Below, piece after piece: positions 39,709 through 61,223 of a DNA stretch of 64,000 nt. Within the stretch, counting starts at the first letter, position 1. Each line of letters starts with the position of its first letter. Under the pieces are notes generated by a model, which was not told where the DNA came from, ran no database searches, and saw only the letters and a list, made by a program, of their open reading frames with translations. The DNA is from Paeniglutamicibacter cryotolerans. GTDB taxonomy: Bacteria; Actinomycetota; Actinomycetes; Actinomycetales; Micrococcaceae. The translations under genes were made by a program, and so were the position numbers. The stretch is taken from NCBI RefSeq assembly GCF_014190875.1, contig NZ_JACHVS010000001.1, positions 868,001-932,000 of the forward strand, written 5' to 3'.

Positions 39709-40503
39709 ATGAGAATCGCACTTTTCGCCACGTGCATCGTCGACGCGATGTACCCGCAGACGGCCCAGGCCACCGTCAGGATCCTCGAGCGGCTCGGCCA
39801 CGAGATCATCTTCCCCGCCGGCCAGGCCTGCTGCGGGCAGATGCACATCAACTCCGGCTACCTCGACGAGGCGAAGCCGGTGGTGGAAAACCACGCACGC
39901 GCCTTCGGCGCCGATGACTACGACGTGGCAGTGGCACCCTCGGGATCCTGTGTCGCCTCGGTCAAACACCAGCACCCCATGATCGCCCGGCGGTACGGGG
40001 ATGCCGGGCTCGAGGAACGAACAACGGCCATCGGCGCCAGGACCTACGAACTCTCCCAGCTGCTCACCGACGTCCTGGGCATCACCGACGCCGCGGCCCA
40101 GCTCGGATCGCACTATCCGCACCAGGTCACCTACCACTCCTCCTGCCACGGCATGCGGCTGCTCAAGCTGGAGGACCGGCAACTTGACCTGCTGCGCAGC
40201 GTCGGCGGCATCGAGGTCACCGAACTGCCCGAGGCAGACCAGTGCTGCGGATTCGGCGGCACATTCGCGCTGAAGAACGCCGAGGTCTCTTCGGCCATGC
40301 TCGCCGACAAGGTGCGCAACATCGAATCCACCGGCGCCGGGCTCTGCGCCGGTGGCGATGCATCATGCCTGCTGCACATCGGCGGCGGGCTATCGCGTTC
40401 CGGCAGCCCGGCAACCACGCTGCACCTGGCCAGGATCCTGGCCAGCACGATGCAGGATCCGGCGCCGGCGCCCGAATCCCTGCGGAGCGGAGCCCGGGCA
40501 TGA
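39709..40503 (+). CDS. lutA: L-lactate utilisation protein LutA
   Basis: A 264-residue protein of the LutA/YkgE family, a cysteine-rich subunit of the iron-sulfur L-lactate dehydrogenase complex LutABC. Two CCG domains are present: CCGQMHINSG (near residue 41) and QCCGFGGTFALKN (near 178), with an additional SSCHGMR (near 145). The complex oxidises lactate to pyruvate at the membrane. First gene of the operon, behind the FadR-type operator; its stop overlaps lutB as ATGA. Confidence 0.93.
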   Translation: MRIALFATCIVDAMYPQTAQATVRILERLGHEIIFPAGQACCGQMHINSGYLDEAKPVVENHARAFGADDYDVAVAPSGSCVASVKHQHPMIARRYGDAGLEERTTAIGARTYELSQLLTDVLGITDAAAQLGSHYPHQVTYHSSCHGMRLLKLEDRQLDLLRSVGGIEVTELPEADQCCGFGGTFALKNAEVSSAMLADKVRNIESTGAGLCAGGDASCLLHIGGGLSRSGSPATTLHLARILASTMQDPAPAPESLRSGARA

Positions 40504-42011
40504 GCAAGGTCTTCATCGGCATGCCTCCCCTGCCTGCCTTCGGAAGCGGCAACCTCAACCTCACCGAGCCCTTCCCCCGGGCCGCGGCGCGCGAACTGGG
40601 CAACCAGCAGCTGCGCTCGAACCTGCGCCATGCCACCCACACGATCCGGGACAAGCGGCTGAAGGTCGTCGCCGAGCTGCCCGACTGGGAGGAACTGCGC
40701 GACGCGGGCTCGGCCATCAAGGAATCGGTCATGGCCGACCTCCCGGCACTGCTGGAGCGGTTCGAGGCGAATTTCACCGCACGCGGCGGGAAAGTCCATT
40801 GGGCCCGCGACGCAGCCGAGGCGAATGCGATCATCACCGAGCTGGTCCGCGCCACCGGCGCGCAGGAGGTGGTGAAGGTCAAGTCCATGGCCACCCAGGA
40901 GATCGGGCTCAACGAGCACCTCGAAACCGAGGGCATCGCCGCCTTTGAGACCGACCTGGCCGAGCTCATCGTCCAGCTCGGCCACGACAAGCCCAGCCAC
41001 ATCCTGGTCCCGGCAATCCACAAGAACCGCACGCAGGTCCGGGACATCTTCCTGGCCGAGATGCCCGGAGTGGACCCGGATCTGACCAACGACCCGGCCA
41101 TGCTGGCCGGCGCCGCCCGGTCCTATCTGCGCAGCAAGTTCCTCACGGCCAGGGTCGCCATTTCGGGTGCCAACTTCGGCATCGCCGACTCCGGCACGCT
41201 GGCGGTCGTCGAATCCGAGGGCAACGGACGCATGTGCCTGACCCTGCCCGAAACACTGATCACCGTGATGGGCATCGAAAAACTGCTGCCGACCTTCGCC
41301 GACCTCGAGGTGTTCATGGCGTTGCTGCCGCGCTCCTCCACCGGCGAGCGCATGAACCCGTACACCTCGCTGTGGACCGGCGTCACCGCCGGCGACGGAC
41401 CGCAAGACGTGCACCTGGTGCTCCTCGATAACGGACGCAGCGCGGCACTGGCCGATGAGATGGGTCGCTCGGCGCTGCATTGCATCCGCTGTTCGGCCTG
41501 CATGAACGTTTGCCCGGTGTATGAGCGCACCGGTGGACACGCCTACGGCTCCACCTACCCGGGGCCGATCGGGGCGATCCTCTCTCCGCTGATGACCGGG
41601 ATCGAAGCGGAAGAGAACAACTCGCTGCCCTATGCCTCATCGCTGTGCGGGGCCTGCTTCGACGCCTGCCCCGTGAAGATCAACATCCCGGAGATCCTGG
41701 TCCACCTGCGCGGAAAGGACGTCGACTCGCGCAGGGGAAGGATGAAGCCGCCCTCGCAGATGGACCTGCTGATGAAGGGAGCGCAGTGGGCCTTCTCCTC
41801 CGGAACGCACCTGGGGCTGCTGGAAAAGGGCCTGCCGCTGGGCCGGTTGGCGGCGGGGCGCAGCAAGAAGATCAAGCACCTGCCCGGGCTCGCTGCCCGG
41901 TGGACGGACAGCCGGGACATTCCCGCACCGCCGCCTGCCTCCTTCCGTGACTGGTGGGCGAAGGAACACGTGCCCGAGGCACCGATCACCCAGCAGGGAG
42001 GGGAAGCATGA
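40500..42011 (+). CDS. lutB: L-lactate utilisation iron-sulfur protein LutB
   Basis: A 503-residue protein with an N-terminal LUD domain (residues about 70-300; SGANFGIADSGTLAVVESEG) and two 4Fe-4S clusters (CIRCSACMNVCPVYE near 323 and CGACFDACPVKI near 382). The C-terminal region is of the DUF3390 type. It is the electron-transfer subunit of LutABC. A longer upstream in-frame start exists, but the ATG at 40500 overlapping the lutA stop gives the family N-terminus. Confidence 0.94.
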   Translation: MSKVFIGMPPLPAFGSGNLNLTEPFPRAAARELGNQQLRSNLRHATHTIRDKRLKVVAELPDWEELRDAGSAIKESVMADLPALLERFEANFTARGGKVHWARDAAEANAIITELVRATGAQEVVKVKSMATQEIGLNEHLETEGIAAFETDLAELIVQLGHDKPSHILVPAIHKNRTQVRDIFLAEMPGVDPDLTNDPAMLAGAARSYLRSKFLTARVAISGANFGIADSGTLAVVESEGNGRMCLTLPETLITVMGIEKLLPTFADLEVFMALLPRSSTGERMNPYTSLWTGVTAGDGPQDVHLVLLDNGRSAALADEMGRSALHCIRCSACMNVCPVYERTGGHAYGSTYPGPIGAILSPLMTGIEAEENNSLPYASSLCGACFDACPVKINIPEILVHLRGKDVDSRRGRMKPPSQMDLLMKGAQWAFSSGTHLGLLEKGLPLGRLAAGRSKKIKHLPGLAARWTDSRDIPAPPPASFRDWWAKEHVPEAPITQQGGEA

Positions 42012-42652
42012 GCGCCCGGGAGGAAATCCTGGCCCGGATCACCGGGGCGCTGGCCGATTCCCCCGTGGCGCGACCTGTCCCCCGGGGCTACCTCCGGGCC
42101 TCAGATACCTCAACAGCACGGCTGATCGAGCTGCTCACCGACCGGTTGGCTGACTACAAGGCCCACGTCGATGTCGTTGCCTCGGCAGGGGTCCCGGGTA
42201 TCCTGGCCGGGCTGCTGGCCGGGGCCGAGAGCTACGTGGTGCCCTCCGGGCTGCCCGATGACTGGTTCGCGCACCCAGCACTGGAGGCAGACGGTGCACC
42301 GCGCCGGCTGCGCGATGACGTGTCGTGCCCACTGTCGGTTGCCGAGCTGGACCGGGCCTCGGCGGTCATCACCGCCAGCGCCGTGTCGGTGGCCGAGTCG
42401 GGCACGATCATGCTCGACGGATCCCCGGCCCAGGGGCGCCGGGTGATCAGTCTGGTCCCGGACCACCACGTGTGCCTGGTCCCCGCCTCGAGCATCGTGC
42501 ACATCCTGCCCGAGGCTGTGGCCCGGTTGGATGGAACCCGGGCGATGACCTGGATTTCGGGGCCGAGCGCCACCAGCGACATCGAACTGGAGCGGGTGGA
42601 GGGGGTCCACGGTCCGCGCCGGCTCGATGTCATCATCATCACCGACAAATAG
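42008..42652 (+). CDS. lutC: L-lactate utilisation protein LutC (LUD domain)
   Basis: A 214-residue LUD-domain protein, third component of the LutABC lactate-oxidising complex. Typical segments: AVSVAESGTIMLDGSPAQGR near residue 127, VPDHHVCLVPASSIV near 150 and TSDIELERVEGVHGPRRL near the C-terminus. The start at 42008 overlaps the lutB stop as ATGA. Last gene of the operon. Confidence 0.93.
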   Translation: MSAREEILARITGALADSPVARPVPRGYLRASDTSTARLIELLTDRLADYKAHVDVVASAGVPGILAGLLAGAESYVVPSGLPDDWFAHPALEADGAPRRLRDDVSCPLSVAELDRASAVITASAVSVAESGTIMLDGSPAQGRRVISLVPDHHVCLVPASSIVHILPEAVARLDGTRAMTWISGPSATSDIELERVEGVHGPRRLDVIIITDK

Positions 42653-44314: not shown

Positions 44315-45799
44315 TCAGGTCAGCGGCAGCGCGAAGGAGAACGTCGAGCCGCCGCCGGGGTTTTCCTCCGCGGTGATGGTGCCGTGGTGCCGGGTGACGA
44401 TCCGGTGGCTCAACGCCAGCCCGAGCCCGCTGCCATCGGCCTTCGTGGTGAACGCGCCGTCGAAGATCCGCCCGTCGGGGAAGCCGGAGAGCCCTGATCC
44501 GTGGTCGATGACCCGGAAGACGGCGAAGCCGCCCTCCCGCGCCGTTTCGAGCCGCACCATGCGCTGCTCCTGCGGGAAGCCGGACATCTCCTCGATCGCG
44601 TTGCGGCACAGGTTCAGCACCACCTGGCCGATCAGCACCTTCTCGCAGAGCACCGGCAGCTCCCCCGGATCCAGGGCGACCTCCAGCGTCGTGGAGTGCC
44701 GCGAGGCAACCAGTTCGATGAAGTACCGGCAGTCTTGCGCCACGGCGTTCAGGTCGACATGTTGTTCAGAGGTCTCCAGCGTGCCCACGAAGCCACGCAG
44801 GCTGCGCAGGATCTGGTTGGCCCGCTCGACCTGCCGTTGCGCGTTCTGAAGCCCGAACTCCAGCTCGGCGACGCTCATCGTGCCCGCCTGGTGGCGGCGT
44901 TGGACTCCGTCCAGGAAGTTGGTGGCTGCGCCCAGCGGCTGGCCCAGCTCGTGCGAAAGCGCCATCGCCATGTCGCCCATGACGTTGTACCGGGCCAGAT
45001 AGTTCAGGTGCTCCTGGTCGCGCTCGCGTTCCCGGTCCTCGCGCACCCGCTCGGTGATGTCGTGCAGGAAAACCAGCGTGCCGGCCAGGTCGTGCTTCAG
45101 GTCGATGCGCTGGCAGGCGGCCCCGAACCAACGCGACTCCCCCGCGGGACCATGCAGTTCCAGCCGGCAGGTGACCATGCCGTCGTCCTGCGCGCATTCG
45201 GCCGACGCCCGGGCAAAGGCCTGTGCCGCTTCGCCCCGGCAGAACCCGGCGAAGTCCAGCCCGATCACCTCGTGCGGGTGGAGTCCCAGCTGCGGAAACA
45301 ACGAATTGCTCGCATAGGAGATCCTCCCGTCCACGCCGATGACCAGGATCGCCTCGCCCATGTTCCCGATGAATGCGTTCAGCCGGCCCTTGGTCCGCTC
45401 CAGTCCGCTCTTGAGCCGTTCCTCGCGTTCCACGTCGCGGAATTCGACGAGCACCACCTCGCGCTCCTCGAGCACCACGTGCCGGGCCAGTGCCTCGGTG
45501 AGGAAGTCCTGTCCGTCCTTGTTCCGGTACATCCACTGCGTCCGGCTGGCCCCGTGCTCCACGGCATCCTGGAGCCAGCGCCGTCCGATGGTCCGGCTGT
45601 AGGGCTCGGCCAGGCCGCTCATGTCGTTTGCCTTCAGCGGGCGCAGTTCATCGAGCGTGAATCCGAACATCCGGCACGCCGCCGGGTTCGCCCACAGGAT
45701 GTCCTTCGTCGCAGCATCGTGCATCAGCAGGCACTGCTCCAACCCGGTGAGCAGGATCCGCGCGTCGGCCTCTGACGGTTCGTATTTTTGGGTATCCAC
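44315..45799 (-). CDS. PAS-domain sensor histidine kinase
   Basis: A 494-residue cytoplasmic-type sensor kinase with no membrane helix. Two PAS domains (about residues 10-125 and 140-255; the second has DGRISYASNSLFPQLG) precede the dimerisation/phosphoacceptor helix with His in ALSHELGQPLG (near 282). The HATPase then shows an N box NLCRNAIEEM and G boxes DHGSGLS and GSGLGLALS. The layout resembles FixL/TodS-type kinases that sense small molecules or redox through PAS. It is divergent from the iac-like genes and probably controls them, but no response regulator is adjacent. A GTG at 45799 is taken as start; a TTG at 45835 is possible. Confidence 0.85.
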   Translation of the reverse strand: MDTQKYEPSEADARILLTGLEQCLLMHDAATKDILWANPAACRMFGFTLDELRPLKANDMSGLAEPYSRTIGRRWLQDAVEHGASRTQWMYRNKDGQDFLTEALARHVVLEEREVVLVEFRDVEREERLKSGLERTKGRLNAFIGNMGEAILVIGVDGRISYASNSLFPQLGLHPHEVIGLDFAGFCRGEAAQAFARASAECAQDDGMVTCRLELHGPAGESRWFGAACQRIDLKHDLAGTLVFLHDITERVREDRERERDQEHLNYLARYNVMGDMAMALSHELGQPLGAATNFLDGVQRRHQAGTMSVAELEFGLQNAQRQVERANQILRSLRGFVGTLETSEQHVDLNAVAQDCRYFIELVASRHSTTLEVALDPGELPVLCEKVLIGQVVLNLCRNAIEEMSGFPQEQRMVRLETAREGGFAVFRVIDHGSGLSGFPDGRIFDGAFTTKADGSGLGLALSHRIVTRHHGTITAEENPGGGSTFSFALPLT

Positions 45800-45994
45800 G
45801 GCTACTAGTTCTATCCCAGTCGGGCGCCACCGCAATAGGTAGTTACTTCAGGCGGCATCGTCCTTTCTTTGCCCGGCGGCGCATAAACACCCATTGAAGG
45901 GCAGTAATTGGGTCAATACCGTGATGCAGACAACACCAGCCTGACCCCCGCAGTTCCCGCCCGGGCCAAGGAACAGACCAACGAGGAGCCCCAC

Positions 45995-47137
45995 ATGACG
46001 TCCGTTGCCGAAGCCCCAGCGCAGGACACGCTGACCGCGGTCCTGGAACTCGTCGATCGGCGGCGCGAGGAGTTCAACACGAACCGCTTCGTGCCCAAGG
46101 ACGTCATCGCTGCCTTCAAGGCAGCCGGCATCTACCGCGCTGCCACCCCGCGCCAGTTCGGCGGCGACGCGCTGCCACCGGCAGAGTTCCTGCGCAAAAT
46201 CGAACTGATCTCCACCGTCGATGCCTCCAGCGGCTGGGTTGCCAGCTTCGGCTCGGCCCTGGTGTACCTGGCGGCGCTGCCGGTGGACACGCAGGCCGAA
46301 CTGTACAAGGACGGCCCCGACCTGGCTTTCGCCGGAGGGCTCTTCCCGGTCCAGAAGGCCGAGCTGAGAAACGGGGCGTTCCATGTCAAGGGCACCTGGA
46401 AGTTCGCCAGCGGCTGCAAGGGCGCCGACCTGCTCGGCGTGGGCATCGCCGGTGGCGAGTCGGCAGCGGGCAAGCCGCGCACGGCGCTGCTGCGCCCGGA
46501 CCAGGTCACCATCCAGGACAACTGGGATGTCATCGGCCTGCATGGCACCGGCAGCCACGACTTGATCGTGGACGGCGTCGACGTGGACCAGGACTGGACG
46601 TTCATTCGCGGTGGCGAGCCGATGATCGACGAGCCGCTCTACCACTACCCCACCATTGCCTATGCGGCGCAGGTCCTGGCCGTGGTGAACCTCGGCGTAG
46701 GCCGTGCGGCCCTGGACTACGCGACGCAGATCGGCGCCGGACGGACCGGCATCACCGGCGCGCCGAAGCTTGCTGACCGCGCCTACTACCGCATCGAACT
46801 GGCCAAGGCCGAGGCCCTGCTGCGTTCGGCCCGTGCCTTCTTCTACGAGATCACCGAGGAAACATATGCGACTGTCGTCGCCACCGGCCGGGCCACGGAT
46901 GCGCAGAAGGCGTTGCTGCGCCTGGCCTCCACGCACGTGGCCAAGGTCGGCGCGCAGGCAGTCAACACCGCCTACTCGCTCTCCGGCACAGCCGCGATCT
47001 ACGACGGCAATCCGCTGCAGCGCCACCTGCGCGACTCGGCCGTCGTCACCCAGCATGCGTTCCTGGGCGATGGCATGTACGACGGCACCGGGTCGGTCCT
47101 GATGGGCCAGCCGCCTCTCATCCCCGGCTTCATCTAA
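45995..47137 (+). CDS. iacA: IacA-like flavin monooxygenase (acyl-CoA dehydrogenase fold)
   Basis: A 380-residue protein of the acyl-CoA dehydrogenase/HpaH-type monooxygenase fold, with FRKIELISTVDASSGW-like substrate helices (KIELISTVDASSGWVASFG, near residue 65) and the FAD-binding middle domain (GTWKFASGCKGADLLGVGIA near 133). In the iac pathway IacA performs the first oxidation of indole-3-acetate on the indole ring. The assignment rests on family plus exact gene order with the six following genes. The ATG at 45995 has GAGGAG eight bases upstream. First gene of the cluster. Confidence 0.8.
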   Translation: MTSVAEAPAQDTLTAVLELVDRRREEFNTNRFVPKDVIAAFKAAGIYRAATPRQFGGDALPPAEFLRKIELISTVDASSGWVASFGSALVYLAALPVDTQAELYKDGPDLAFAGGLFPVQKAELRNGAFHVKGTWKFASGCKGADLLGVGIAGGESAAGKPRTALLRPDQVTIQDNWDVIGLHGTGSHDLIVDGVDVDQDWTFIRGGEPMIDEPLYHYPTIAYAAQVLAVVNLGVGRAALDYATQIGAGRTGITGAPKLADRAYYRIELAKAEALLRSARAFFYEITEETYATVVATGRATDAQKALLRLASTHVAKVGAQAVNTAYSLSGTAAIYDGNPLQRHLRDSAVVTQHAFLGDGMYDGTGSVLMGQPPLIPGFI

Positions 47138-47186
47138 CCCGCGCCCCCCACCTCATCCACCGCAAGATCCCAGCGAAGGAATAACC

Positions 47187-47573
47187 ATGACAGCGAGCGA
47201 TGCCCGCCCCGAGCCGTTGCGCACCCTGTTCTGCATCGGCATCAACCAGAACTTCTTCAACCTGCCCAAGAAGGACATCGGCCCGGTCTGGGTCGCCTTC
47301 TCCGGCATGCTCTCGGCCATGGCGTCGATGCCCGGCGTCGATGTCATCGGCAACATGGACGACGACTCCCACGTGGTCGGCCCGTCGGCCGGATGGCCTT
47401 GGACCTGCTACGTGATGGCCGACGTCGACACGCAGGAAACCGTCAAGGCGGTCTGCAACCTGTTCCGCACCACCATGGTCGATGAGACCCACGCGCTATG
47501 GACCTACGCCCACATCGAGGCCCGCATGGGCCGTGCGCTGACCATCCGCAACGACGTCGAAATCGCCAAGTAA
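47187..47573 (+). CDS. iacB: IacB-like small protein
   Basis: A 128-residue soluble protein with no catalytic motif I can name. Its size, position directly after iacA, and the sequence around LFCIGINQNFFNLPKKDIGPV suggest IacB, a conserved small protein of iac clusters whose biochemical role is unsettled. Good ribosome-binding site (AAGGA eight bases upstream). The iacI-like gene begins two bases after its stop. Confidence 0.7.
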   Translation: MTASDARPEPLRTLFCIGINQNFFNLPKKDIGPVWVAFSGMLSAMASMPGVDVIGNMDDDSHVVGPSAGWPWTCYVMADVDTQETVKAVCNLFRTTMVDETHALWTYAHIEARMGRALTIRNDVEIAK

Positions 47574-47575
47574 CC

Positions 47576-48109
47576 ATGGTCGGAGTCCGGGCCACCACGA
47601 GCCTCACCGGGTTGGAGACGCGCCTGCAGCTGCTGGAGGCGGGCGAATCGATCCGCTGGATCATTTCCCGCTACCTGGAGTTGTGCGACGTTCCGCAACC
47701 GGAATTCGACCTCGCCGAGCTCGGCTCGCTGTTCACGCACGATGCCACCTGGCAGGGAATCGGACCCGAATATGATGCGAAGTTCGGCCGCTACAGCGGC
47801 CGCGAAGCCATCGTCGAAATGCTCGGTCACCACCTGCTGCCCGGCGGCCCGTTCACCGCCAATGCCCATGTGCTGGGCGAGGGACGCATCAACATCTCGT
47901 TCCCCACGGCGAGTGGCAGCTGGATCATGCAGCAGCTCTCGCAGTACGCGGACGGCCGCCAGGAAGTGGTGGCTGCCCGGATCACCGTGGACTTCGAACT
48001 CGGCGGGGCCATGGCCCTGATCAAGGCCTTCCGCACCCAGCGCCTCGTGGCGCTTTCCCCGGCGGACCTCGCCACCCCCACACTAGCCACCACCTTAAGG
48101 AGTCACTGA
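47576..48109 (+). CDS. iacI: IacI-like SnoaL/NTF2-fold protein
   Basis: A 177-residue protein of SnoaL/NTF2-like architecture: an N-terminal helical part (ESIRWIISRYLELCDV), an acidic FTHDATWQGIGPEYD strand typical of SnoaL_4 proteins, then a curved beta sheet. In iac clusters this position is occupied by IacI, which assists an early oxidation step. There is no strong ribosome-binding site; translation is probably coupled to iacB two bases upstream. Its stop shares a base with the iacC start. Confidence 0.7.
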   Translation: MVGVRATTSLTGLETRLQLLEAGESIRWIISRYLELCDVPQPEFDLAELGSLFTHDATWQGIGPEYDAKFGRYSGREAIVEMLGHHLLPGGPFTANAHVLGEGRINISFPTASGSWIMQQLSQYADGRQEVVAARITVDFELGGAMALIKAFRTQRLVALSPADLATPTLATTLRSH

Positions 48110-49386
48110 TGAGTACCCCCCTCATGGAGAACCACGACGGCTTCTCCGCACTTGCCGCCACCGATCGGGTCGCCGGGCAGCTTTACACCGATCCGGAGAT
48201 CTTCGAGGCCGAGCTGGAGAAGATCTTCTACAAGACCTGGGTCTGGGTGGCCCACGAGTCGGAGATCCCGGACAAGGGCAACTTCAAGAAGGCGATGATC
48301 GGCCGCCAGCCGGTCATCGTCACCCGCGACCGCAAGGGCGCGCTGAACGTGCTGCTGAACCGCTGCCGCCACCGTGGCGCCTCGATCTGCGAGCCGGACA
48401 AGGGCAAGGCCAACGGCTTCACCTGCCCGTACCACTCCTGGTCCTACTCGCTCGACGGGCAGCTGCGCGGCATCCCGTACCCCGAGGGCTATGAGGGCGT
48501 GATCGAGAAGAAGGACATGCCGCTGCAGAAGCTGCGCGTCGAGTCCTACGCCGGGATGGTCTTCGCCTCCTTCAACCAGGACATCGAACCGCTCGAGGAC
48601 TTCCTGGGCGATGCGAAGCTGTGGATGGACCGCTTCATGATGCAGGGCGCAGGCTTCGGCATCAAGGTCCAGGGCGAGCACAAGTTCCGCTTCGACGGCA
48701 ACTGGAAGATTCAGCTGGAGAACACCACCGACGGCTACCACTTCCCCATAGTTCACCGTTCGTGGATGGCCTCGGTCGACGCCGAAACCGCTGACATGCT
48801 CTCCTTCATGACCGATGAGAACGCGGTGACCCACGCGCTGGGCAACGGCCACAGCGTCGCCATCATGGTCCCCGAGCACGTGGAGCTGGATGCCGACGAC
48901 GGCACCGAGGAGCTGCAGGAACGATTCCGCCACATCATCGATGAACTCTCCGAGACGATGCCGGCCGACCAGGTCCGCCGCATCGTGCGTTCGATGCACG
49001 GTGCCGGGTTCAACCTGAACCTGTTCCCGAACGTCGCCATGTCGATGTCCTTCTTCCGCGTGCTGCGCCCGATCTCGGTCAACGAGACCGAGGTCCAGCA
49101 CATGGCCCTGGGCCTGGATGGCGGACCGGAAAGCGTCAACCGCGAACGCCTGCGCATCCACGAACACTTCCAGGGCCCGTTCGGTTTCGGTACACCCGAT
49201 GATGCCGAGGCATGGGACCGCGTGCAGCGCGGCGCCAACGGCAACCCGCAGATGCCGATCATGGTCAACCGCGGCCTGAACCGCGAAACGACGGGTACAG
49301 AAGGCTGGAAGACATCGCACGTGACCGACGAATCAGGCATGCGCGAATCCTACTCGCAGTGGAAGAAGATGATGGGCAATGACTAG
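48109..49386 (+). CDS. iacC: IacC-like Rieske dioxygenase, large subunit
   Basis: A 425-residue alpha subunit of an aromatic-ring-hydroxylating dioxygenase. Rieske ligands C86 and H88 (NRCRHRGA) and C106 and H109 (CPYHSWSY) are present, and the mononuclear-iron histidines lie in NTTDGYHFPIVHRSW (near residue 205). Its neighbour iacD is the matching beta subunit, so an alpha3beta3 enzyme is expected. In the iac pathway it dioxygenates an oxidised indole-acetate intermediate on the way to catechol. Overlaps iacI by one base and iacD by eight. Confidence 0.87.
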   Translation: MSTPLMENHDGFSALAATDRVAGQLYTDPEIFEAELEKIFYKTWVWVAHESEIPDKGNFKKAMIGRQPVIVTRDRKGALNVLLNRCRHRGASICEPDKGKANGFTCPYHSWSYSLDGQLRGIPYPEGYEGVIEKKDMPLQKLRVESYAGMVFASFNQDIEPLEDFLGDAKLWMDRFMMQGAGFGIKVQGEHKFRFDGNWKIQLENTTDGYHFPIVHRSWMASVDAETADMLSFMTDENAVTHALGNGHSVAIMVPEHVELDADDGTEELQERFRHIIDELSETMPADQVRRIVRSMHGAGFNLNLFPNVAMSMSFFRVLRPISVNETEVQHMALGLDGGPESVNRERLRIHEHFQGPFGFGTPDDAEAWDRVQRGANGNPQMPIMVNRGLNRETTGTEGWKTSHVTDESGMRESYSQWKKMMGND

Positions 49387-49912
49387 CGAAAGCACCCTGA
49401 CGGCACCCCTGGAAAACGGCTTCGCGTCCGACGCGCTGCTCGATCCGATGGTCTCCAAGGCCATCGCGCTGATCTGGCACGAGGCCACGCTGCTCGATGC
49501 CAAAAACTACGTCGCCTGGGAGGCCCTGTGGACCCCGGGCGGGAAGTACGTGATCCCGATCGATCCGGACACCGATGACTTCGAGTCCGGCCTGAACATG
49601 ATCTACGACGATGCCCGGATGCGCCGCATGCGCGTGACCCGGCTGACCGAGGGCTACTCGATGTCTGCCGTCGCCTCGGCGCGCACGGCACGCACCATCT
49701 CCCGCTTCACCGTCACGGCGAACGACGGCGAGTGCGTGACGCTGCGCTCGGCGCAGATCATCGTGGGATTCAAGCGCGAAAAGCACCTGCTGCTGGCCGC
49801 AGACCTGGAACACCGGATCAGCTTCGTCGACGGCGAACCGCGCCTGGATCTGAAGGTCGTCCGCCTGGTCAATTCCGAAGGGGCCGTCACGGCCTCGGGA
49901 TTCCTCCTCTAA
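49379..49912 (+). CDS. iacD: IacD-like aromatic dioxygenase, small subunit
   Basis: A 177-residue beta subunit of a ring-hydroxylating dioxygenase (SnoaL-like cone fold). Family features are the N-terminal HEATLLDAKNYVAWEALWTPGG-type strand (acid and tryptophan residues around 40-55), the central DDARMRRMRVTRLTEG and the C-terminal RISFVDGEPRLDLKVVRLVNS. Starts eight bases inside iacC, so the two subunits are translationally coupled. Confidence 0.85.
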   Translation: MTSESTLTAPLENGFASDALLDPMVSKAIALIWHEATLLDAKNYVAWEALWTPGGKYVIPIDPDTDDFESGLNMIYDDARMRRMRVTRLTEGYSMSAVASARTARTISRFTVTANDGECVTLRSAQIIVGFKREKHLLLAADLEHRISFVDGEPRLDLKVVRLVNSEGAVTASGFLL

Positions 49913-49922
49913 GGGGCACCCC

Positions 49923-50705
49923 ATGACGACAACAGTTGAAACCACGGCAGCACCCCGCATCGACAACGGCCAAGTCGCCGTCGTCACCGGCGCAACCCGC
50001 GGACTGGGCGCGGTCATCGCGCGCACCCTGCATGCTGCCGGCTATTCGGTGCTCGCCACCGGCAGCCGGATCGGACCGGTCCAGGACCTGGCCGACGAGC
50101 TGGATCCCAGCGGCAAGACGGCCGCAGCCACGGTGCTCGACGTCCGCAGCAAGGACGACTTCTCAGCGGCGCTCCAAGCCGCGGTGGAGCGTTGGGGAAC
50201 GGCCCACGTGCTGGTCAACAACGCCGGCCGCTCCCAGGTCCAGGCGCTGATGGACATCAGCCCGGAGGACTTCTCGGCGATCGTTTCCACCAACCTCGAC
50301 GGCGTCTTCCTGGGCTGCCAGGTTTTCGGCAGCTACTTCGCTTCCAACGGCTACGGCCGCATCGTGAACATCGGCTCACTGGCCGGCCAGAACGGCGGCA
50401 CAGCCACCGGCGCGCACTACGCGGCAGCCAAGGGCGGAGTGGTCACCTTGACCAAGGTCTTCGCCCGCGACCTGGCCTCCGGCGGTGTCACGGTGAACTC
50501 GGTGTCCCCGGGCCCGCTCGATCTGCCGGTGGTCCACGAGACGGTCGCCCCGGACAAGCTGGAGGCCGTCAAGGCGAGCATTCCCGTGGGCCGTCTCGGC
50601 TCCGCGGAATTCATCGCCTCGACCGTCGCCCTGCTGGCATCCCCCGAGGCCGCTTCGGTCAACGGCGCCAGCTGGGACATCAACGGGGGGCTGTTCATGC
50701 GCTGA
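49923..50705 (+). CDS. iacE: IacE-like short-chain dehydrogenase
   Basis: A 260-residue classical SDR with TGATRGLG (NAD(P) motif, near residue 21), NNAGRSQV (near 98), the catalytic serine in VNIGSLAGQNG and YAAAKGG (Tyr/Lys pair near 164). In the iac pathway IacE reduces or dehydrogenates an intermediate between the first oxidation and the dioxygenase step. AAGGGG lies before the ATG, ten bases after the iacD stop. Confidence 0.82.
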   Translation: MTTTVETTAAPRIDNGQVAVVTGATRGLGAVIARTLHAAGYSVLATGSRIGPVQDLADELDPSGKTAAATVLDVRSKDDFSAALQAAVERWGTAHVLVNNAGRSQVQALMDISPEDFSAIVSTNLDGVFLGCQVFGSYFASNGYGRIVNIGSLAGQNGGTATGAHYAAAKGGVVTLTKVFARDLASGGVTVNSVSPGPLDLPVVHETVAPDKLEAVKASIPVGRLGSAEFIASTVALLASPEAASVNGASWDINGGLFMR

Positions 50706-50773
50706 TCGCCACCGCGATCAGCGCACGGCGCCCCGACACATGCGTAGCACCACCAAGCTAGAGGAGTACGGAC

Positions 50774-51730
50774 ATGAAAAAGGTCCGGGTTAAAGTGGCA
50801 GCGGTTTCGGATGAAACCAGCAGCATCAAGACGTTTCGTTTGGAACGCGCCGACGGGTCGGTCTTTGCCCCGGCCCCGGCCGGCGCGCATATCGATATTG
50901 TCGGTCCCACCGAGGTCACCCGCCAGTACTCGCTGTGCAACGCACCGGACGAGGGCTCCTACCTGGTCGCGGTGAAGCTCGAACCCGAGTCCCGCGGCGG
51001 TTCCGCCGCACTTCACGGCGAGGTGGCCGTGGGCACCGAACTCGAGGTCAGCGAGCCGCGCAACCTGCTCAACGTGGCAACCGATGCCGACCGCCACGTG
51101 CTGGTGGCGGCCGGCATCGGCATCACCCCGATGATCAGCATCGCCTACGATCTGCACCGTTCGAACACCGACTTCGAGCTGCACTACTTTGCCCGCTCCC
51201 ACGCGGAGGCCGCATTCACCGAGTTACTCGAGCAGCGCTGCGGCTTCACCGAATCGGTGCGCTTCCACTTCGGGATTCCGCGCGGCGAGCAGGGCGCCAT
51301 CATGACCGCCCTCGCACAGGACGCCGGAGCCGGCGTCCATGTCTACACCTGTGGCCCGGTCGGCTTCATGGAGAAGGTCCATGACGCATTTGCCCCGGTG
51401 ATCGGCGAGGCCCAGTTCCACATCGAGCATTTCGAGGCCGAGGCGATCGATGCCTCCCACGACACGGCGTTCGAGGTGGAACTGGATACCGGTGAAGTCT
51501 TCGAGATCCCGGCCGACCGCTCGATCGTGGACGTGCTCCAGGAAAACGGCATCGAGGTCGATACTTCCTGCAAGGAGGGAATCTGCGGCACCTGCGTCAT
51601 GGGCGTGCTCGAGGGAGTTCCCGAGCACCGCGATAACTGCCTCTCCACCTCGGAGAAGGCGGCAAATGACCAGATGGCCACCTGCGTGTCCCGGACGTGC
51701 GGCAAGCGCCTGCTGTTGGAGCTCTTCTAG
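50774..51730 (+). CDS. iacF: IacF-like oxygenase reductase with 2Fe-2S ferredoxin
   Basis: A 318-residue reductase of the phthalate-dioxygenase-reductase type. The flavin domain has RQYSLCNAP (near residue 55), the NAD domain has AAGIGITPMISI (near 112) and YTCGPVGFM (near 195), and the C-terminal plant-type 2Fe-2S domain has CKEGICGTC with a distal cysteine in MATCVSRT. It transfers electrons from NAD(P)H to the Rieske dioxygenase encoded upstream. GAGGAG precedes the ATG. Last gene of the cluster in this window; iacG and iacH homologues are not adjacent. Confidence 0.85.
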   Translation: MKKVRVKVAAVSDETSSIKTFRLERADGSVFAPAPAGAHIDIVGPTEVTRQYSLCNAPDEGSYLVAVKLEPESRGGSAALHGEVAVGTELEVSEPRNLLNVATDADRHVLVAAGIGITPMISIAYDLHRSNTDFELHYFARSHAEAAFTELLEQRCGFTESVRFHFGIPRGEQGAIMTALAQDAGAGVHVYTCGPVGFMEKVHDAFAPVIGEAQFHIEHFEAEAIDASHDTAFEVELDTGEVFEIPADRSIVDVLQENGIEVDTSCKEGICGTCVMGVLEGVPEHRDNCLSTSEKAANDQMATCVSRTCGKRLLLELF

Positions 51731-55887: not shown

Positions 55888-57261
55888 CTAGACTCGTCCA
55901 GAGACGCGGTCCGCAAGATGAGCGATCTTTGAGGTTGACGATTTGCCGCCCTTTTCTGCCCAGTCGGCCATGCCGTAAGCCTTGTATAACGTCTGGACCG
56001 CAACCCAGCGGGCGGGCTCAACTTCCCAGCGTCGCACCTTGCGGTTCACCCACGGCATGGAGGCCAGCTCACTGCCGGGGTCAAGGATCAGGTCCCGCAA
56101 GGTCCGCCCGGCCAGGTTGGTGGCGGTGACCCCGGTACCCACGTAGCCTCCGGCCCACCCGATACCCGTTTCCTTATCCAGTCCGACGGTGGCCTTCCAA
56201 TCCCGGGGGACTCCCAGCACGCCGGCCCAGGCGTGGTCGATCGCGGCATCGCGGGTGGCTGGAAACATGACATGGAGGATATCTGTGAGTAGCTTGATGG
56301 TGCCGCGCTGGGTTGCCCCGTCGGTGTCCGTCTTGGATCCGTAGCGGTACGGCACCCCGCGCCCGCCCAAGGCGATGCGGTTATCGGCGGTGCGTTGGGC
56401 ATACATATAGGCGTGGGCCATGTCGCCCACGACATCGCGTCCGTTCCAGCCAATGGCATCCCATACCGAATCCGGCAGCGGTTCGGTGGCGATCATGGAG
56501 GAGTTCATGGGCAGCCATTCGCGGTGAGCGCCCTTCAGGTTCGCGGTGAACCCCTCGGTGGCGCGCAGGATATAGGTGGCTTGAACGGTTCCGTACGTGG
56601 TGATGGCCTTGCGCGGCAAGACCTCGGTGACGGTGGTCCCCTCGTAGATCCTCACGCCCAGCCTCAAGCAGGCATCGGCCAGACCGCGGACCAGCTTCAC
56701 GGGGTGGATCCGGGCCGCATGGGGGTGGTGGATGGAGCCCAGCGCCCCGGCGATGTCCACCCGTTCCCTGGTCTGCCCGGCATCCAACAACCGGGCTCCG
56801 GCCTCGGGCCACTGCGCCTCATCGTCGGCCAGGGCCTGCAGGCGCAGCAGCTGGGCCTGGTTGCGGGCCACGTTCAGCTCCCCGCCCTTGATGTATCCGG
56901 CGTCGATGCCTTCAGCGCCGGATACGCTAATGACCTCGTCAACCGTTTCGTTCAGCAGCTCCTGGAAACGGCCCACCGTAGACCGTCCGTGGGATGCAAC
57001 GTACTGATCCCGGCCACCGGTGATCGAATTGGTCAGCCACCCGCCGTTGCGCCCGGAGGCGCCGAAGCCGGCAAACCTGGATTCGAGCACCACAATATCC
57101 AGCGACGGGTCGGCCTTCTTCAGGTAGTACGCGGTCCACAACCCGGTGTAGCCGGCACCGACGATCACCACGTCGGCGATGGTGTCCCCGGTCAGGGGCG
57201 TGCGCTGACCCGGGAGGCCATCGGCGGCGAACCAAAAGGAAACGTTGCCGTTAACAGTCAT
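55888..57261 (-). CDS. FAD-dependent amine oxidoreductase (PuuB-like)
   Basis: A 457-residue DAO-family flavoprotein. The N-terminal FAD motif GAGYTGLWTAYYLKK (near residue 36) is followed by FAGFGASGRNGGWL (near 65), the hallmark of gamma-glutamylputrescine oxidase PuuB and related amine or amino-acid oxidases. The C-terminal GWAGGYVGTGVTATNLAGR closes the FAD site. It is the last gene of the pot-like operon, 33 bases after the ATPase gene. It probably oxidises the amine that the transporter imports, giving aldehyde, ammonia and a reduced acceptor. Confidence 0.85.
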   Translation of the reverse strand: MTVNGNVSFWFAADGLPGQRTPLTGDTIADVVIVGAGYTGLWTAYYLKKADPSLDIVVLESRFAGFGASGRNGGWLTNSITGGRDQYVASHGRSTVGRFQELLNETVDEVISVSGAEGIDAGYIKGGELNVARNQAQLLRLQALADDEAQWPEAGARLLDAGQTRERVDIAGALGSIHHPHAARIHPVKLVRGLADACLRLGVRIYEGTTVTEVLPRKAITTYGTVQATYILRATEGFTANLKGAHREWLPMNSSMIATEPLPDSVWDAIGWNGRDVVGDMAHAYMYAQRTADNRIALGGRGVPYRYGSKTDTDGATQRGTIKLLTDILHVMFPATRDAAIDHAWAGVLGVPRDWKATVGLDKETGIGWAGGYVGTGVTATNLAGRTLRDLILDPGSELASMPWVNRKVRRWEVEPARWVAVQTLYKAYGMADWAEKGGKSSTSKIAHLADRVSGRV

Positions 57262-57294
57262 GGTGGGGGTATCTCTTTCGTTTTCGTGCTTGGA

Positions 57295-58401
57295 TCAGGT
57301 GATGGAGACGAGGTCGTAGTCGCTGAGCAGCACGCCGTGTTCGCGGGTCCAATAGACCCAGGCGCGGTCCCCGGAGACCAGTGTGGTGCCGTGCTCGCGG
57401 GAGGCGCGCACGATGCCGGTGGATCCGTCGGGCAGTTCGAGTTCGTATTTGTGCCCGGAGCCGAGGTAGATGTTCTGGATGACGGTGACCGGGACCATGG
57501 TGGAGCCCTGCGGGACTTGCACAGCGTGCTCTACCACGCGCATTTGCTCGGGCCGCAGCACTAGCGCACCCTTGGTGGGCACCGTTTTAGTAACCGGGCC
57601 ATTGAGGGTGGTGCCATGGAAGTCCATGGACCAGTCGCGCCCGTTGCTGTCCACCGCGGCCTTGAAGACGGTGGATTCACCCATGAACTTGGCCACGAAC
57701 AGGGACTCTGGACGCTCGTAGAGATCCGAGCTGGTGCCGACCTGCTCGATGCGCCCGTTATTGAAGATGGCGATGCGGTCCGAGAGGATCAGTGCTTCTT
57801 CCTGATCGTGGGTGACGAACACGAAGGTGCGCCCTACCTCTTGGTGGATGCGCTTGATCTCCAGCTGCAACTTCTCGCGCAGGTTCTTGTCCAGGGCGCC
57901 GAGCGGTTCATCCATGAGCAGTGCCATCGGGTCAAAAACCATGGCCCGGGCGAACGCGACACGCTGCTGCTGGCCGCCGGAGAGCTCCTTCGGGTAGCGG
58001 CCTTCATAGCCGGAGAGGCCCACGGTGTTCAGCACCTGGGTGATCATCTGGGACTGTTTGTCCTTGGGGACCTTGCGTTGGCGCAGCGGGAAGGCGATAT
58101 TTTCGGCGACGCTCATGTGCGGAAAGAGGGCGTAGTGCTGGAAGACCACACCGAGTCCGCGTTGGTGCGCCGGGACGTGGTCCACGCGCCGACCGTCGAT
58201 TTCGATGGACCCGCTTGAGAGGTCAGTGAAACCGGCAATGAGGTTCAGCGTGGTGGTCTTACCCGAACCCGAGGGACCCAGCAGGGTGATGAATTCGCCT
58301 GGCTTGATGCTCAGTGAGACGTCGCGCACCGCGATGGATTTGTCGTAGCGTTTGGTGGCGTTGTTGACATCGATGCGGATGCCGGTCGTGGGGTTAGACA
58401 T
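57295..58401 (-). CDS. Polyamine-type ABC transporter ATPase (PotA-like)
   Basis: A 368-residue ATPase with Walker A GPSGSGKTT (near residue 41), signature LSGGQQQR (near 140), Walker B LLMDEPLGALD and switch FVTHDQEEA. The C-terminal TOBE region (about 270-360) is typical of spermidine/putrescine and Fe3+ type importers. It energises uptake of the substrate captured by the binding protein at 60096-61223. Overlaps the preceding permease gene by eight bases. Confidence 0.9.
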   Translation of the reverse strand: MSNPTTGIRIDVNNATKRYDKSIAVRDVSLSIKPGEFITLLGPSGSGKTTTLNLIAGFTDLSSGSIEIDGRRVDHVPAHQRGLGVVFQHYALFPHMSVAENIAFPLRQRKVPKDKQSQMITQVLNTVGLSGYEGRYPKELSGGQQQRVAFARAMVFDPMALLMDEPLGALDKNLREKLQLEIKRIHQEVGRTFVFVTHDQEEALILSDRIAIFNNGRIEQVGTSSDLYERPESLFVAKFMGESTVFKAAVDSNGRDWSMDFHGTTLNGPVTKTVPTKGALVLRPEQMRVVEHAVQVPQGSTMVPVTVIQNIYLGSGHKYELELPDGSTGIVRASREHGTTLVSGDRAWVYWTREHGVLLSDYDLVSIT

Positions 58402-59188
58402 GTTTCCTCCTGCGCATGCTCAACAGGCCAACGGCGATGATGACGGTGGTGAGCAGCATGATCATGGTGGCTGCGGCGGCGATAGTGGGGTCAGTGTCGC
58501 GGGTGACCGATGCATACATCTTCACCGGCAGGGTTTCTAGGTAAGGGCTCTTGATGAAGATCGAGAGCACGACCTCGTCGAACGAGGTGACGAACGCGAA
58601 CAGGGCGCCGGAGACGACTCCGGGCATGATCAGCGGCAGCATCACGGTACGGAACGCGTTCCAGCGACTGGCCCCGAGGCTGGCGGCGGCCGTGCTCAGG
58701 CGTTCGTCGTAGCCGGCCAAGGCCGCGGTGACGGAGACCAGCACGAACGGGATGGCCAGGATGGAGTGGGCGGCGACGAAGCCGATGAGGGTCCCCAGCA
58801 GTTGGAAGCGCAGGAACAGGGCGTAGATGCCGATGGCCAAGATGATGGCCGGGACCACCAGCGGTGCTAGGACCAGGACTTGGGCGGCTTTGGCCCAGCG
58901 TCTGCGTTTCCAGGAGCGGATGCCCACGGCGGCCGCGGTGCCGAAGCTGGTGGCCACGATGACCACGATGACGGCAACCAGGATGGAGTTGCCGAAGGCG
59001 CTGGTCCAGGCGGGGTCTTCAAAGAAGTTCGTGTACCAGCGGGTGGACCACCCCGTGGGCGGGAAGCTGAGCGAGGCTTTGTCGGTGAAGCCCAGCGGGA
59101 TGACCACCAAGGTGGGGGCCACCAGCAGGAACGCGACCAGGGCCGTGTAGATTCCGAGCAGGCTCCGGGTCAGGGGACGGTGTTTCAT
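58394..59188 (-). CDS. Polyamine-type ABC permease (PotC-like)
   Basis: A 264-residue permease with six predicted helices and the EAA-type loop AAASLGASRWNAFRTVMLP (near residue 165). The N-terminus MKHRPLTRSLLGIYTALVAF is typical of PotC. It pairs with the PotB-like permease, whose stop overlaps its start (ATGA). Confidence 0.88.
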   Translation of the reverse strand: MKHRPLTRSLLGIYTALVAFLLVAPTLVVIPLGFTDKASLSFPPTGWSTRWYTNFFEDPAWTSAFGNSILVAVIVVIVATSFGTAAAVGIRSWKRRRWAKAAQVLVLAPLVVPAIILAIGIYALFLRFQLLGTLIGFVAAHSILAIPFVLVSVTAALAGYDERLSTAAASLGASRWNAFRTVMLPLIMPGVVSGALFAFVTSFDEVVLSIFIKSPYLETLPVKMYASVTRDTDPTIAAAATMIMLLTTVIIAVGLLSMRRRKHV

Positions 59189-60099
59189 ATCAGATCTCCA
59201 TCGTCACCGGTGTGGCGTTTGCTGCGTTTGGTCAGCAGGGCCAGCAGGCCCAGCAGCAGGAGGGTTGCCACCAGGAGCAGGACCCCCAGGACGCTGCCCC
59301 GGCCCCATTGGAGCTGGCCGTTGACCTGAACGTAGATGTATTGGGAAATGAGCATTTGTGAGGGTGAGCCGAGCAAGGCGGGGGTGATGTAGAAGCCCAG
59401 TGCCTGGATGAAGACCAGCAGCGAGCCGGAGATCACCCCGGGCATGGCCAGCGGGACGAAGATCTTGAAGAATGCGACCGAGGGGCGGGCGCCGAGGCTG
59501 GCGGCGGCCTGGACCAGGCGCAGGTCGACGTTGCCCATGGCGGAGTATAGGGGCAGGACCATGAACGGCAGCAGGACCTGAACCATGCCAATGAGGATGC
59601 CGGTGGTGTTGCGGATCATGCTGAACGGGCCCAGACCCACCCAGGAAAGGACCTCGTTGACCAGCCCGGTGTCCTGGAGCAGGATGATCCAGGCGAAGGA
59701 GCGGATCATCAGGGAAGTCCAGAAGGGAATGAGTACGATGACGATCAACACGGTCTTCATCTTCTGGCTGGAGATGGTCATGAAGTAGGCGTAGGGGTAG
59801 GCCAGGGCCAGACAGATGACGGCGGAAAGCAGTGCGATCCACAGGGTGCGGCCCAGGATGACCCAGTTGGCGGAGTCGGAGGCGAACCACTGGTAGTTCT
59901 GGAAGCCCAGCACGGGGTCCGAGACGCTGGTCCACATGGATTCGGCCAGGGGGTAGGCGAATATGCCCGCGGCCAGGGCCAGTGCGGGCAGGATCAGCCA
60001 GGCGGGGCCGGGCCGGAATCTGCGTTTGCGGTCCGCGGCCCGGTCCGTGCGGCCGGAGGCGGGCTCCGGCCGCACGGTGTCGAGGGTTGGAAGGCTCAT
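59185..60099 (-). CDS. Polyamine-type ABC permease (PotB-like)
   Basis: A 304-residue permease with six helices and the EAA-type loop VQAAASLGARPSVAFFKIFVP (near residue 205). The helix-2 to helix-3 segment, with SLMIRSFAWIILLQDTG, is a PotB/PotH signature. The start at 60099 is chosen because it overlaps the binding-protein stop as ATGA; an upstream in-frame start at 60153 lies inside that gene. Confidence 0.88.
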   Translation of the reverse strand: MSLPTLDTVRPEPASGRTDRAADRKRRFRPGPAWLILPALALAAGIFAYPLAESMWTSVSDPVLGFQNYQWFASDSANWVILGRTLWIALLSAVICLALAYPYAYFMTISSQKMKTVLIVIVLIPFWTSLMIRSFAWIILLQDTGLVNEVLSWVGLGPFSMIRNTTGILIGMVQVLLPFMVLPLYSAMGNVDLRLVQAAASLGARPSVAFFKIFVPLAMPGVISGSLLVFIQALGFYITPALLGSPSQMLISQYIYVQVNGQLQWGRGSVLGVLLLVATLLLLGLLALLTKRSKRHTGDDGDLI

Positions 60100-61223
60100 T
60101 TTGCGACCCAGGCGACCCACTGCTCGGCGACCTGGGTGTAGTTCTTGCCCCACCAGGCAAAGTCACTCTTGAGCACCTTGGGGGCAATGGCCGGGTCGGT
60201 GATCAGGAAGTTCTTCGCGGTCTCGCTCAGGTTCGGTTTGGCCTCGGTGTTGATCGGGGAGTAGGAGGTTTCCTCGGTCAGCTTCGCCTGCTGTTCGGCA
60301 CCCAGGTAGTAATTGATCGCTGCCATGGATGCCTGGGGGTTTTTGGCGCCCTTGGGCACCGTCAGCGTGTCCATAACGACCGCGGATGCGTCCCAGAGCG
60401 GGGCGTAGTGGGCGCCGTTGTCCACGGCGCCGAAGGCGCGGCCGGACCACATGACCGACATGTCGACCTCCCCGGATTCGAGCATCTGCTGGGCCTGGGC
60501 CCCGGTGGTCCAGTAGACCAGGGAATCCTTGATGGTATCGAGCTTCTTGAAGGCCCGGTCCATGTCCAGCGGGTAGAGGTCCTTCGGATCCACACCGTCG
60601 GCGATCAGGGCACCTTCGATGATGCCGGCTTCGATGTTCTCGGTGCCGTCGATCGAGCGCTTGCCCGGGTACTTCGCGGTGTCGAAGAAGTCAGCCCACG
60701 AGGTGGGTGCGTCCTTGTACTTATCGGTGTTATACATCAGCACGTTGGCGTACTGCATAGCCGGGACGGCGCACTCGCTGACCAGCCCCTCGGGTACCTT
60801 GGAGACGTCGATGATGTCCAAGTCCAGCGGCATCAGTTCGGTTCCGCACTGGCTGGCCGCCCAATATGAGCCAGTGTCCACGATGTCCCAGGAGACGTTG
60901 TTGGATTCGACCTGGGCCTTGATTTTGGAGTATTCGGTCGGCCCATCGGAGAGGATCTTGGCTCCCGATTCCTTGCCGAACGGGGTAATCGCTGCCGCCA
61001 TCTGGCCGTCCTGGTAGAGCCCGCCATAGGAGACGAAGGTGAGCGTCTGGCCCTTGAGCGCGTCGGCCTTGACGGTGCCTGCCTTAGCTGGCCCGCTGCC
61101 GAGATCTACTTCCGCGGCCGGAGCCCCGCTGCTGCTGCCGCAGGCGCTCAGCAGCAGCGCCGAGGCGGCTGCGAGCGATAGGACGGTGAAACCACGGGAC
61201 TTTTTGGACTTCGAATCAATCAT
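60096..61223 (-). CDS. Polyamine-type ABC substrate-binding lipoprotein (PotD-like)
   Basis: A 375-residue periplasmic-type binding protein. The lipobox ALLLSACGSS puts the modified cysteine near residue 28. The mature part reads LTFVSYGGLYQDGQMAAAI and later SWADFFDTAKYPGKRSI, typical of PotD/spermidine-preferential and related amine or opine binding proteins. First gene of the five-gene operon (binding protein, two permeases, ATPase, oxidase). The substrate could be putrescine, spermidine or another amine. Confidence 0.88.
   Translation of the reverse strand: MIDSKSKKSRGFTVLSLAAASALLLSACGSSSGAPAAEVDLGSGPAKAGTVKADALKGQTLTFVSYGGLYQDGQMAAAITPFGKESGAKILSDGPTEYSKIKAQVESNNVSWDIVDTGSYWAASQCGTELMPLDLDIIDVSKVPEGLVSECAVPAMQYANVLMYNTDKYKDAPTSWADFFDTAKYPGKRSIDGTENIEAGIIEGALIADGVDPKDLYPLDMDRAFKKLDTIKDSLVYWTTGAQAQQMLESGEVDMSVMWSGRAFGAVDNGAHYAPLWDASAVVMDTLTVPKGAKNPQASMAAINYYLGAEQQAKLTEETSYSPINTEAKPNLSETAKNFLITDPAIAPKVLKSDFAWWGKNYTQVAEQWVAWVAK

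What the first reader, a model, noticed from the sequence alone, without database searches (positions are those of the whole stretch)
44315..51730. Actinobacterial indole-3-acetate (iac) degradation cluster
Seven consecutive genes match, in order and family, iacA-B-I-C-D-E-F: flavin monooxygenase, small protein, SnoaL-like protein, Rieske large and small subunits, SDR and 2Fe-2S reductase. This order is established for Pseudomonas putida 1290 and other proteobacteria that destroy the plant hormone IAA. Finding it intact in an Arthrobacter-like genome would extend the pathway to a Gram-positive soil actinobacterium. iacG and iacH homologues are not next to the cluster, so the pathway may be completed elsewhere or differ.
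Basis: partly seen in the sequence, partly recalled or inferred. Interest (0 to 1): 0.8.

Follow-up and report, generated by a model that had tools for sequence, protein, structure and literature searches.

The report
Auxin-breakdown genes in a soil actinobacterium
This stretch carries the known set of genes with which bacteria break down the plant hormone auxin, here in an Arthrobacter-like bacterium; the missing helper genes turn up a little further along the chromosome, and a shared DNA motif suggests that both halves are still run together.

Summary
Window 45995-51730 (+) encodes IacA-B-I-C-D-E-F, the set reported as minimal for indole-3-acetate (IAA) catabolism. IacA and IacC fall in supported actinobacterial groups of iac homologues that exclude BenA and iad-type oxygenases. 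'No iacG/iacH nearby' is explained: the cluster is split. A FixJ-like response regulator, an iacG flavin reductase, an amidase and an MFS transporter lie 34 kb downstream on the same contig; a congener keeps everything together. catABC-like genes follow near 983 kb. Kinase and regulator match the two-component pair beside iacA and iacG in other bacteria (79 of 80 and 59 of 59 named loci). A 17-bp motif learned only from those loci gives, as its three best sites in 122.9 kb of this genome, the kinase/iacA, MFS and regulator/iacG promoters. So: an ordinary iac pathway, probably whole, rearranged, predicted to be two-component controlled. Actinobacterial iac loci are already in print, and split iac pathways are known in Paraburkholderia. 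The shared operator and the regulator's wide spread are the fresh part. IAA use by the host is untested.

The parts
44315..45835 (-). IacS-like sensor histidine kinase with PAS domains, no clear membrane span; divergent from iacA; exact start uncertain (TTG at 45835 overlaps the predicted operator)
   Evidence: Pfam PAS and HATPase_c; H, N and G boxes; 84% to congener G012; homologue divergent from and adjacent to iacA in 79 of 80 named loci
45835..45851 (-). predicted response-regulator operator at the kinase/iacA gap
   Evidence: best hit in 122.9 kb of own genome of a motif learned only from loci L029-L108
45995..47137 (+). iacA, flavin-dependent IAA monooxygenase (acyl-CoA dehydrogenase fold)
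47187..47573 (+). iacB, small protein of unclear role
   Evidence: homologue in 78 of 80 named loci, median 56% identity
47576..48109 (+). iacI, SnoaL-like protein
   Evidence: Pfam SnoaL_4; homologue in 73 of 80 named loci, median 42%
48109..49386 (+). iacC, Rieske dioxygenase large subunit
   Evidence: metal-site motifs
49379..49912 (+). iacD, dioxygenase small subunit
   Evidence: Pfam Ring_hydroxyl_B; homologue in 76 of 80 named loci
49923..50705 (+). iacE, short-chain dehydrogenase
   Evidence: Pfam; homologue in 77 of 80 named loci, median 64%
50774..51730 (+). iacF, 2Fe-2S/flavin reductase for the dioxygenase
   Evidence: Pfam Fer2 and NAD-binding; homologue in 66 of 80 named loci

Best explanation
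It is an iac-type IAA-to-catechol pathway, split into two loci in this genome. IacA, fed reduced flavin by IacG (34 kb away), oxidises IAA to 2-oxoindole-3-acetate; IacE converts this to 3-hydroxy-2-oxindole-3-acetate (DOAA); the IacCD dioxygenase with reductase IacF, helped in an unknown way by IacB and IacI, takes it on to catechol; CatA, CatB and CatC, encoded near 983 kb, open the ring. A soluble PAS kinase (IacS-like) senses IAA or a metabolite, phosphorylates the FixJ-like regulator encoded beside iacG, and this binds a 17-bp box in front of kinase/iacA, regulator/iacG and the MFS gene, so that the split halves act as one regulon. Shown by sequence: genes, families, synteny, split, boxes. 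Inferred: substrate, the signal, phosphotransfer, DNA binding, and the enzyme steps (by homology to characterised Iac proteins).
For: Seven intact genes in a known order. Window IacA lies in a group of 17 actinobacterial rows (100/98) and window IacC in one of 15 (SH-aLRT 95, quick tree), which exclude all outgroups. In an even-step sample of 60 of 301 plasmid records, six IacC matches are 53.5-75.4% and the other 54 are 37% or lower, with nothing between. The second locus RR-iacG-amidase-MFS is at C1:954048-958415; RR, iacG and amidase are 87-94% identical to the congener's, where they and the MFS gene are contiguous with the cluster. catA and catC pass their NCBIfam cut-offs; catB matches below its own. 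Linkage counts 79 of 80 and 59 of 59. Motif log-likelihood 365 against 56-62 in three shuffled sets; top three hits in 122.9 kb are the three iac promoters. The minimal set A, B, C, D, E, F, I is as stated in PMC10329457 (passages). Enzyme steps for IacA and IacE: PMC7225977 (passages).
Against: No activity data for this host. The amidase is only 27-43% identical to IacH-type amidases of the named loci (69 of 80 gave a match), so orthology is weak. The ABC transporter beside the congener's cluster has no close copy here (best 42%). Motif scores fall gradually: hits 4 and 5 in the own stretch (10.3, 9.8) are not iac-linked and only just below hit 3 (10.8). Seven of 17 other actinobacterial iacA upstream regions show no box above the 95% background, nor do 7 of 12 iacG upstream regions. 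The motif control was searched less hard (300 seeds, 4 refined) than the real set (900, 12). The trees have long branches; the IacC tree is the quick version, and BenA/iad rows join it in an unresolved part beside the proteobacterial rows, so a single all-iac IacC branch is not itself shown.
Confidence: 0.87

Rival explanations
1. The cluster degrades another 3-substituted indole (indole-3-propionate, indole-3-butyrate or a related soil indole) rather than IAA.
For: IacA and IacE of Caballeronia glathei accept several indole derivatives (PMC7225977, passages).
Against: The seven genes plus iacG and the two-component pair match clusters of the IAA type; no extra side-chain enzyme lies in the cluster.
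Confidence: 0.08
2. The split marks decay: the pathway is no longer functional in this genome.
For: The congener's ABC transporter genes have no close copy and a DDE-transposase-like gene lies between the two halves (L020:15849-16769).
Against: Every gene is an intact frame; catalytic motifs are kept; the 7.4 kb block is 87% identical to the congener from kinase stop to iacF stop; predicted operators persist at both halves; iac genes split over two chromosomes are described for Paraburkholderia LB400 and PsJN (PMC11676955, passages).
Confidence: 0.05
3. The cluster is a recent import from Proteobacteria.
For: Patchy spread (2 of 15 in the genus, 7 of 395 in the family, own genome counted) and the same order as Pseudomonas.
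Against: IacA and IacC sit in actinobacterial groups; GC of the block is 65.8% against 63.8% for the rest of the window.
Confidence: 0.04

Closest known systems
iac clusters with a two-component regulator (Pseudomonas and Burkholderiales loci among L029-L108; Paraburkholderia phytofirmans PsJN as cited in PMC11630574, passages)
   Same: Same seven enzymes, divergent kinase beside iacA, response regulator divergent from iacG, related promoter box
   Different: Split by 34 kb on one contig here; amidase and MFS transporter only distantly similar; iacH not inside the operon
iac cluster of Pseudomonas putida 1290 (MarR type) and Acinetobacter
   Same: Homologous IacA-F and I families
   Different: MarR repressor there; kinase plus FixJ-like regulator here
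Actinobacterial iac loci (Streptomyces sp. NBC_00564 plasmid L133; Rhodococcus plasmids L134, L135; congener G012)
   Same: G012 holds the closest IacA and IacC of the rows compared; L133 also has iacG and an amidase (61% and 48%)
   Different: L133 has a ROK regulator, no iacI found and adjoining cat genes; L134 shows no kinase, iacI or iacG in reach; L135 is shuffled; G012 is unsplit and carries an ABC transporter
iad clusters (Variovorax)
   Same: Rieske dioxygenase-based IAA degradation
   Different: IacC here is 31% identical to the Variovorax plasmid oxygenase L162 (that L162 is an IadD is my assumption); IacA, IacB and IacI are present; predicted end product catechol, not anthranilate

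Membership tests
iac-like IAA catabolic cluster | IacA monooxygenase of the iac group | tested here: met
   Tree of 36 rows and identities 59-66% to 80 named loci; outgroup only two own-genome paralogues
iac-like IAA catabolic cluster | Adjacent IacC and IacD grouping with iac, not with benzoate or iad oxygenases | tested here: met
   Supported actinobacterial group excludes BenA and iad-type rows; 65-75% to the 76 named loci with IacC against 29-35% for those outgroups
iac-like IAA catabolic cluster | Minimal set iacA, B, C, D, E, F, I | tested here: met
   All seven in the window; set as stated in PMC10329457 (passages)
iac-like IAA catabolic cluster | IacG flavin reductase | tested here: met
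   L021:3034-3540, 87% to the congener, median 64% in the 59 named loci where it was found; 34 kb from the cluster
iac-like IAA catabolic cluster | IacH amidase | tested here: inconclusive
   Amidase beside iacG, but 27-43% to amidases of the named loci; 41-52% to those in other actinobacterial loci outside the congener
iac-like IAA catabolic cluster | Catechol ortho-cleavage genes in the genome | tested here: met
   catA and catC over cut-off, catB-like below cut-off, one stretch near C1:983 kb
iac-like IAA catabolic cluster | IAA consumed to catechol | not testable with these tools
   needs culture work
Two-component regulated iac subtype (IacS/LuxR-type) | Kinase divergent from iacA and response regulator divergent from iacG | tested here: met
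   Kinase in window, regulator at C1:954048-954716 divergent from iacG
MarR-regulated iac subtype | MarR gene in the cluster | tested here: not met
   Genes of 44315-51730 and RR, iacG, amidase, MFS show other or no Pfam domains; the rest of the genome was not searched for MarR
iad-like cluster | IadD/E-type oxygenase, no iacA/B/I | tested here: not met
   IacC 31% to Variovorax L162; IacA, B, I present

The most novel reading that the evidence does not exclude
The kinase/FixJ-type pair with its 17-bp box (CTAAAGAAATCACCTAG-like) is an old and widespread regulator of iac genes shared by Actinobacteria and Proteobacteria, not an innovation of Pseudomonas, and it has held the pathway together as one regulon after its genes were physically split in this genome.
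Probability: 0.6. Interest if true: 0.5.

Novelty: new member of a known kind. Interest (0 to 1): 0.38.

Why it matters
IAA destruction by soil bacteria alters root growth, and the characterised iac clusters cited in the papers seen here are proteobacterial. An actinobacterial cluster with its parts named gives a direct test case. A 2024 survey suggested that the two-component regulator evolved or was obtained independently within Pseudomonas (PMC11630574, passages); the same pair, the same divergent layout and a related box in Actinobacteria argue for an older link and name the DNA site to test. It also shows that a search for a full adjacent cluster would miscall this split pathway as incomplete.

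Tried and rejected
Rejected: benzoate- or iad-type assignment; recent import from Proteobacteria; 'pathway incomplete'; the window's other Rieske gene (20333-21637) as part of the pathway, since it matches glycine betaine monooxygenase GbcA, though below that model's cut-off. The cat-linked flavin reductase near 982 kb is not IacG: 29% to the congener's IacG, and it lies beside an HpaB-like gene (below cut-off).

Led nowhere: a phylum sample gave only the own genome (1 of 396; at most four candidates per genome scored). A first box search with a matrix from five actinobacterial sites was partly circular (20 of 98 iacA and 32 of 72 iacG upstream regions above the 99% background), so the motif was relearned from L029-L108 alone. 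A 14-base whole-genome pattern gave two exact sites, both iac, but it was made from those sites, and at up to one mismatch its reversed control gave 7 hits against 3, so I do not lean on it. A looser consensus gave 4 window hits against 1.0 expected, only one of them exact, at 45835.

Rows dropped before counting: in the trees 15 of the 80 named loci were used; L135 fell out of IacA (cut by the locus end), L144, L146 and L148 out of IacC, and 9 of 11 own-genome paralogue loci gave no IacA row. For the motif, 50 of 139 upstream regions were kept after dereplication. The L105 record (titled Ammoniphilus) has IacA but no kinase, IacB or IacC in reach and is the one exception among 80.

Limits: the 80 named loci are the best 80 of 458 for an alignment headed by a Pseudomonas IacA, so counts from them are not a census. 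The PsJN regulator paper (Donoso 2017) is not held. That I found no operator or actinobacterial two-component iac report rests on searches only, in an open-licence library.
Full report
WHAT IS THERE. The window is C1:868001-932000 of a 4.14 Mb genome in 6 contigs. Reading frames at 45995-51730 (+) give IacA, B, I, C, D, E and F with the expected Pfam domains. No NCBIfam model listed for the seven enzymes passes its cut-off (best 25 shown per protein); the nearest are related families (HsaA-type monooxygenase, anthranilate and benzoate dioxygenases).

IS IT IAC. Trees were built from 36 IacA rows and 39 IacC rows. IacC outgroups were three own-genome Rieske oxygenases, a BenA, a Rhodococcus PD630, a Variovorax and an Achromobacter oxygenase; IacA outgroups were two own-genome paralogues (of 11 offered). 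Window IacA falls with 16 other actinobacterial rows (100/98), window IacC with 14 others (SH-aLRT 95; quick tree). The nearest rows are congener G012 (93% and 94%) and G158 (77% and 85%). Long branches make deep placements unsure: the BenA/iad rows join the IacC tree by a long branch in an unresolved part beside the proteobacterial iac rows, so the separation there rests mainly on identity. In the plasmid collection 301 records match IacC at E 1e-40; of 60 shown by even steps, six lie at 53.5-75.4% and 54 at 37% or lower.

WHERE THE REST IS. Congener G012 has the block in one piece: kinase, iacA-F, an ABC transporter (substrate-binding, ATPase and permease genes, named by eye), a FixJ-like response regulator, an iacG-type flavin reductase, an amidase and an MFS transporter. 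In the window's genome the nucleotide match stops exactly at the iacF stop and at the kinase stop (51730 and 44315; 86.8% over 7431 bases), and a second match (83.3% over 2193 bases) covers regulator, iacG and part of the amidase gene; these three genes span C1:954048-956811 and the MFS gene follows to 958415 (domains). The distance from iacF to this locus is 34.3 kb. Three other family members with enough flanking sequence (G107, G054, G077) also keep these parts close together (the iacG match is only 24-27% in the last two), so the split is probably derived here. The ABC transporter has no close copy (best 42%). A DDE-transposase-like gene lies between the halves at about 947.8-948.8 kb; that it caused the split is a guess. 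catA, catC, a catB-like gene and a gene that looks LysR-type by eye are at C1:982404-985761, so the route from catechol is present.

SPREAD. IacA at E 1e-100 or better: 7 of 395 family genomes including the own one, 1 of 396 phylum genomes, the own one, 15 of 392 in a genus that I take to be Streptomyces; at E 1e-80, 2 of 15 in the genus, own included. score at most four candidates per genome. Named database hits include Rhodococcus, Prescottella, Nocardia, Streptomyces and Arthrobacter (best 120 listed each). So the genes are patchy but plainly present in Actinobacteria.

REGULATION. In 79 of 80 named loci the kinase homologue (37-46%) is divergent from and adjacent to iacA; in all 59 loci where iacG was found the regulator homologue (51-59%) is divergent from and adjacent to iacG (best 80 of 458; all but one titled as Proteobacteria). 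In the seven family-level loci the kinase is beside iacA in 6 (G021 lacks it). Of nine Streptomyces-type loci (L133, L142-L149), three show kinase and regulator in reach; the annotated L133 has a ROK regulator before iacA. A motif learned without supervision from 50 dereplicated iacA and iacG upstream regions of L029-L108 reads CTAAAGAAAtCaCCTAG (log-likelihood 365; 56-62 in three shuffled sets, which were searched with fewer seeds). Scored on 122.9 kb of the own chromosome, both strands, its top three sites are the kinase/iacA gap (13.7), just before the MFS gene (12.0) and the regulator/iacG gap (10.8); the next two, 10.3 and 9.8, are not iac-linked. The congener's MFS gene carries the same box. 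In 17 other actinobacterial loci, 7 iacA upstream regions exceed the 99% background, 3 more the 95%, and 7 show nothing; of 12 iacG upstream regions 2 exceed the 99%, 3 more the 95%, and 7 show nothing. Of two Acinetobacter loci one iacA upstream region is negative and one exceeds the 95%. The background was drawn from these same loci and can contain true sites.

LITERATURE. Auxin-degrading loci (iac and iad together) in five phyla including Actinobacteria, 221 genera (PMC9613470, section 8). iac predicted in Nocardiaceae (PMC12462448, passages). Arthrobacter and Rhodococcus cited as IAA catabolisers, though that paper's own Arthrobacter isolate was IAA-negative (PMC7481731, passages). Seven-gene minimal set (PMC10329457, passages). 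IacA gives Ox-IAA and IacE gives DOAA, with IacB and IacI unclear (PMC7225977, passages). iac genes split over two chromosomes in Paraburkholderia LB400 and PsJN (PMC11676955, passages), so a split pathway is not new in kind. Two-component regulator seen in four Pseudomonas strains, as in PsJN, and said to have independently evolved or been obtained there (PMC11630574, passages). My data do not fit an origin inside Pseudomonas.

VERDICT. A real, probably functional iac pathway, new member of a known kind. The interest lies in the explained split and the shared predicted operator, not in the mere presence of iac in a Gram-positive.

Noticed in passing
window 20333-24465 and 27879-31647: A Rieske oxygenase (GbcA-like, below cut-off), its reductase (GbcB-like, below cut-off), glutathione-independent formaldehyde dehydrogenase (over cut-off) and a ProV-like ABC transporter ATPase: looks like a betaine-type demethylation and uptake set.
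   Followed up: partly
window 40242-42652: LutB/LldF family lactate-oxidation iron-sulfur protein (just over its cut-off) with a LutC-like neighbour by eye, on the far side of the kinase from the iac genes.
   Followed up: partly
window 55888-61835: FAD oxidoreductase, polyamine-type ABC transporter and a cupin/HTH regulator on the minus strand: a probable amine uptake and oxidation operon (ATPase and oxidoreductase, the rest by eye).
   Followed up: partly
L020:15849-16769 (C1 about 947.8-948.8 kb): DDE-transposase-like gene between the two halves of the split iac pathway.
   Followed up: no
L146, L147, L135: Iac genes in some Streptomyces-type and Rhodococcus loci are present but shuffled into several blocks, so other rearranged iac layouts exist in Actinobacteria.
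   Followed up: partly
L105: Record titled Ammoniphilus has an IacA 62% identical to the window's with no kinase, IacB or IacC found nearby; contamination or a different pathway.
   Followed up: no
L141 (G021): A family member with IacC, D, F and a distant IacA (45%) but no IacB, IacE, IacI or kinase detected: perhaps a related pathway for another substrate.
   Followed up: no
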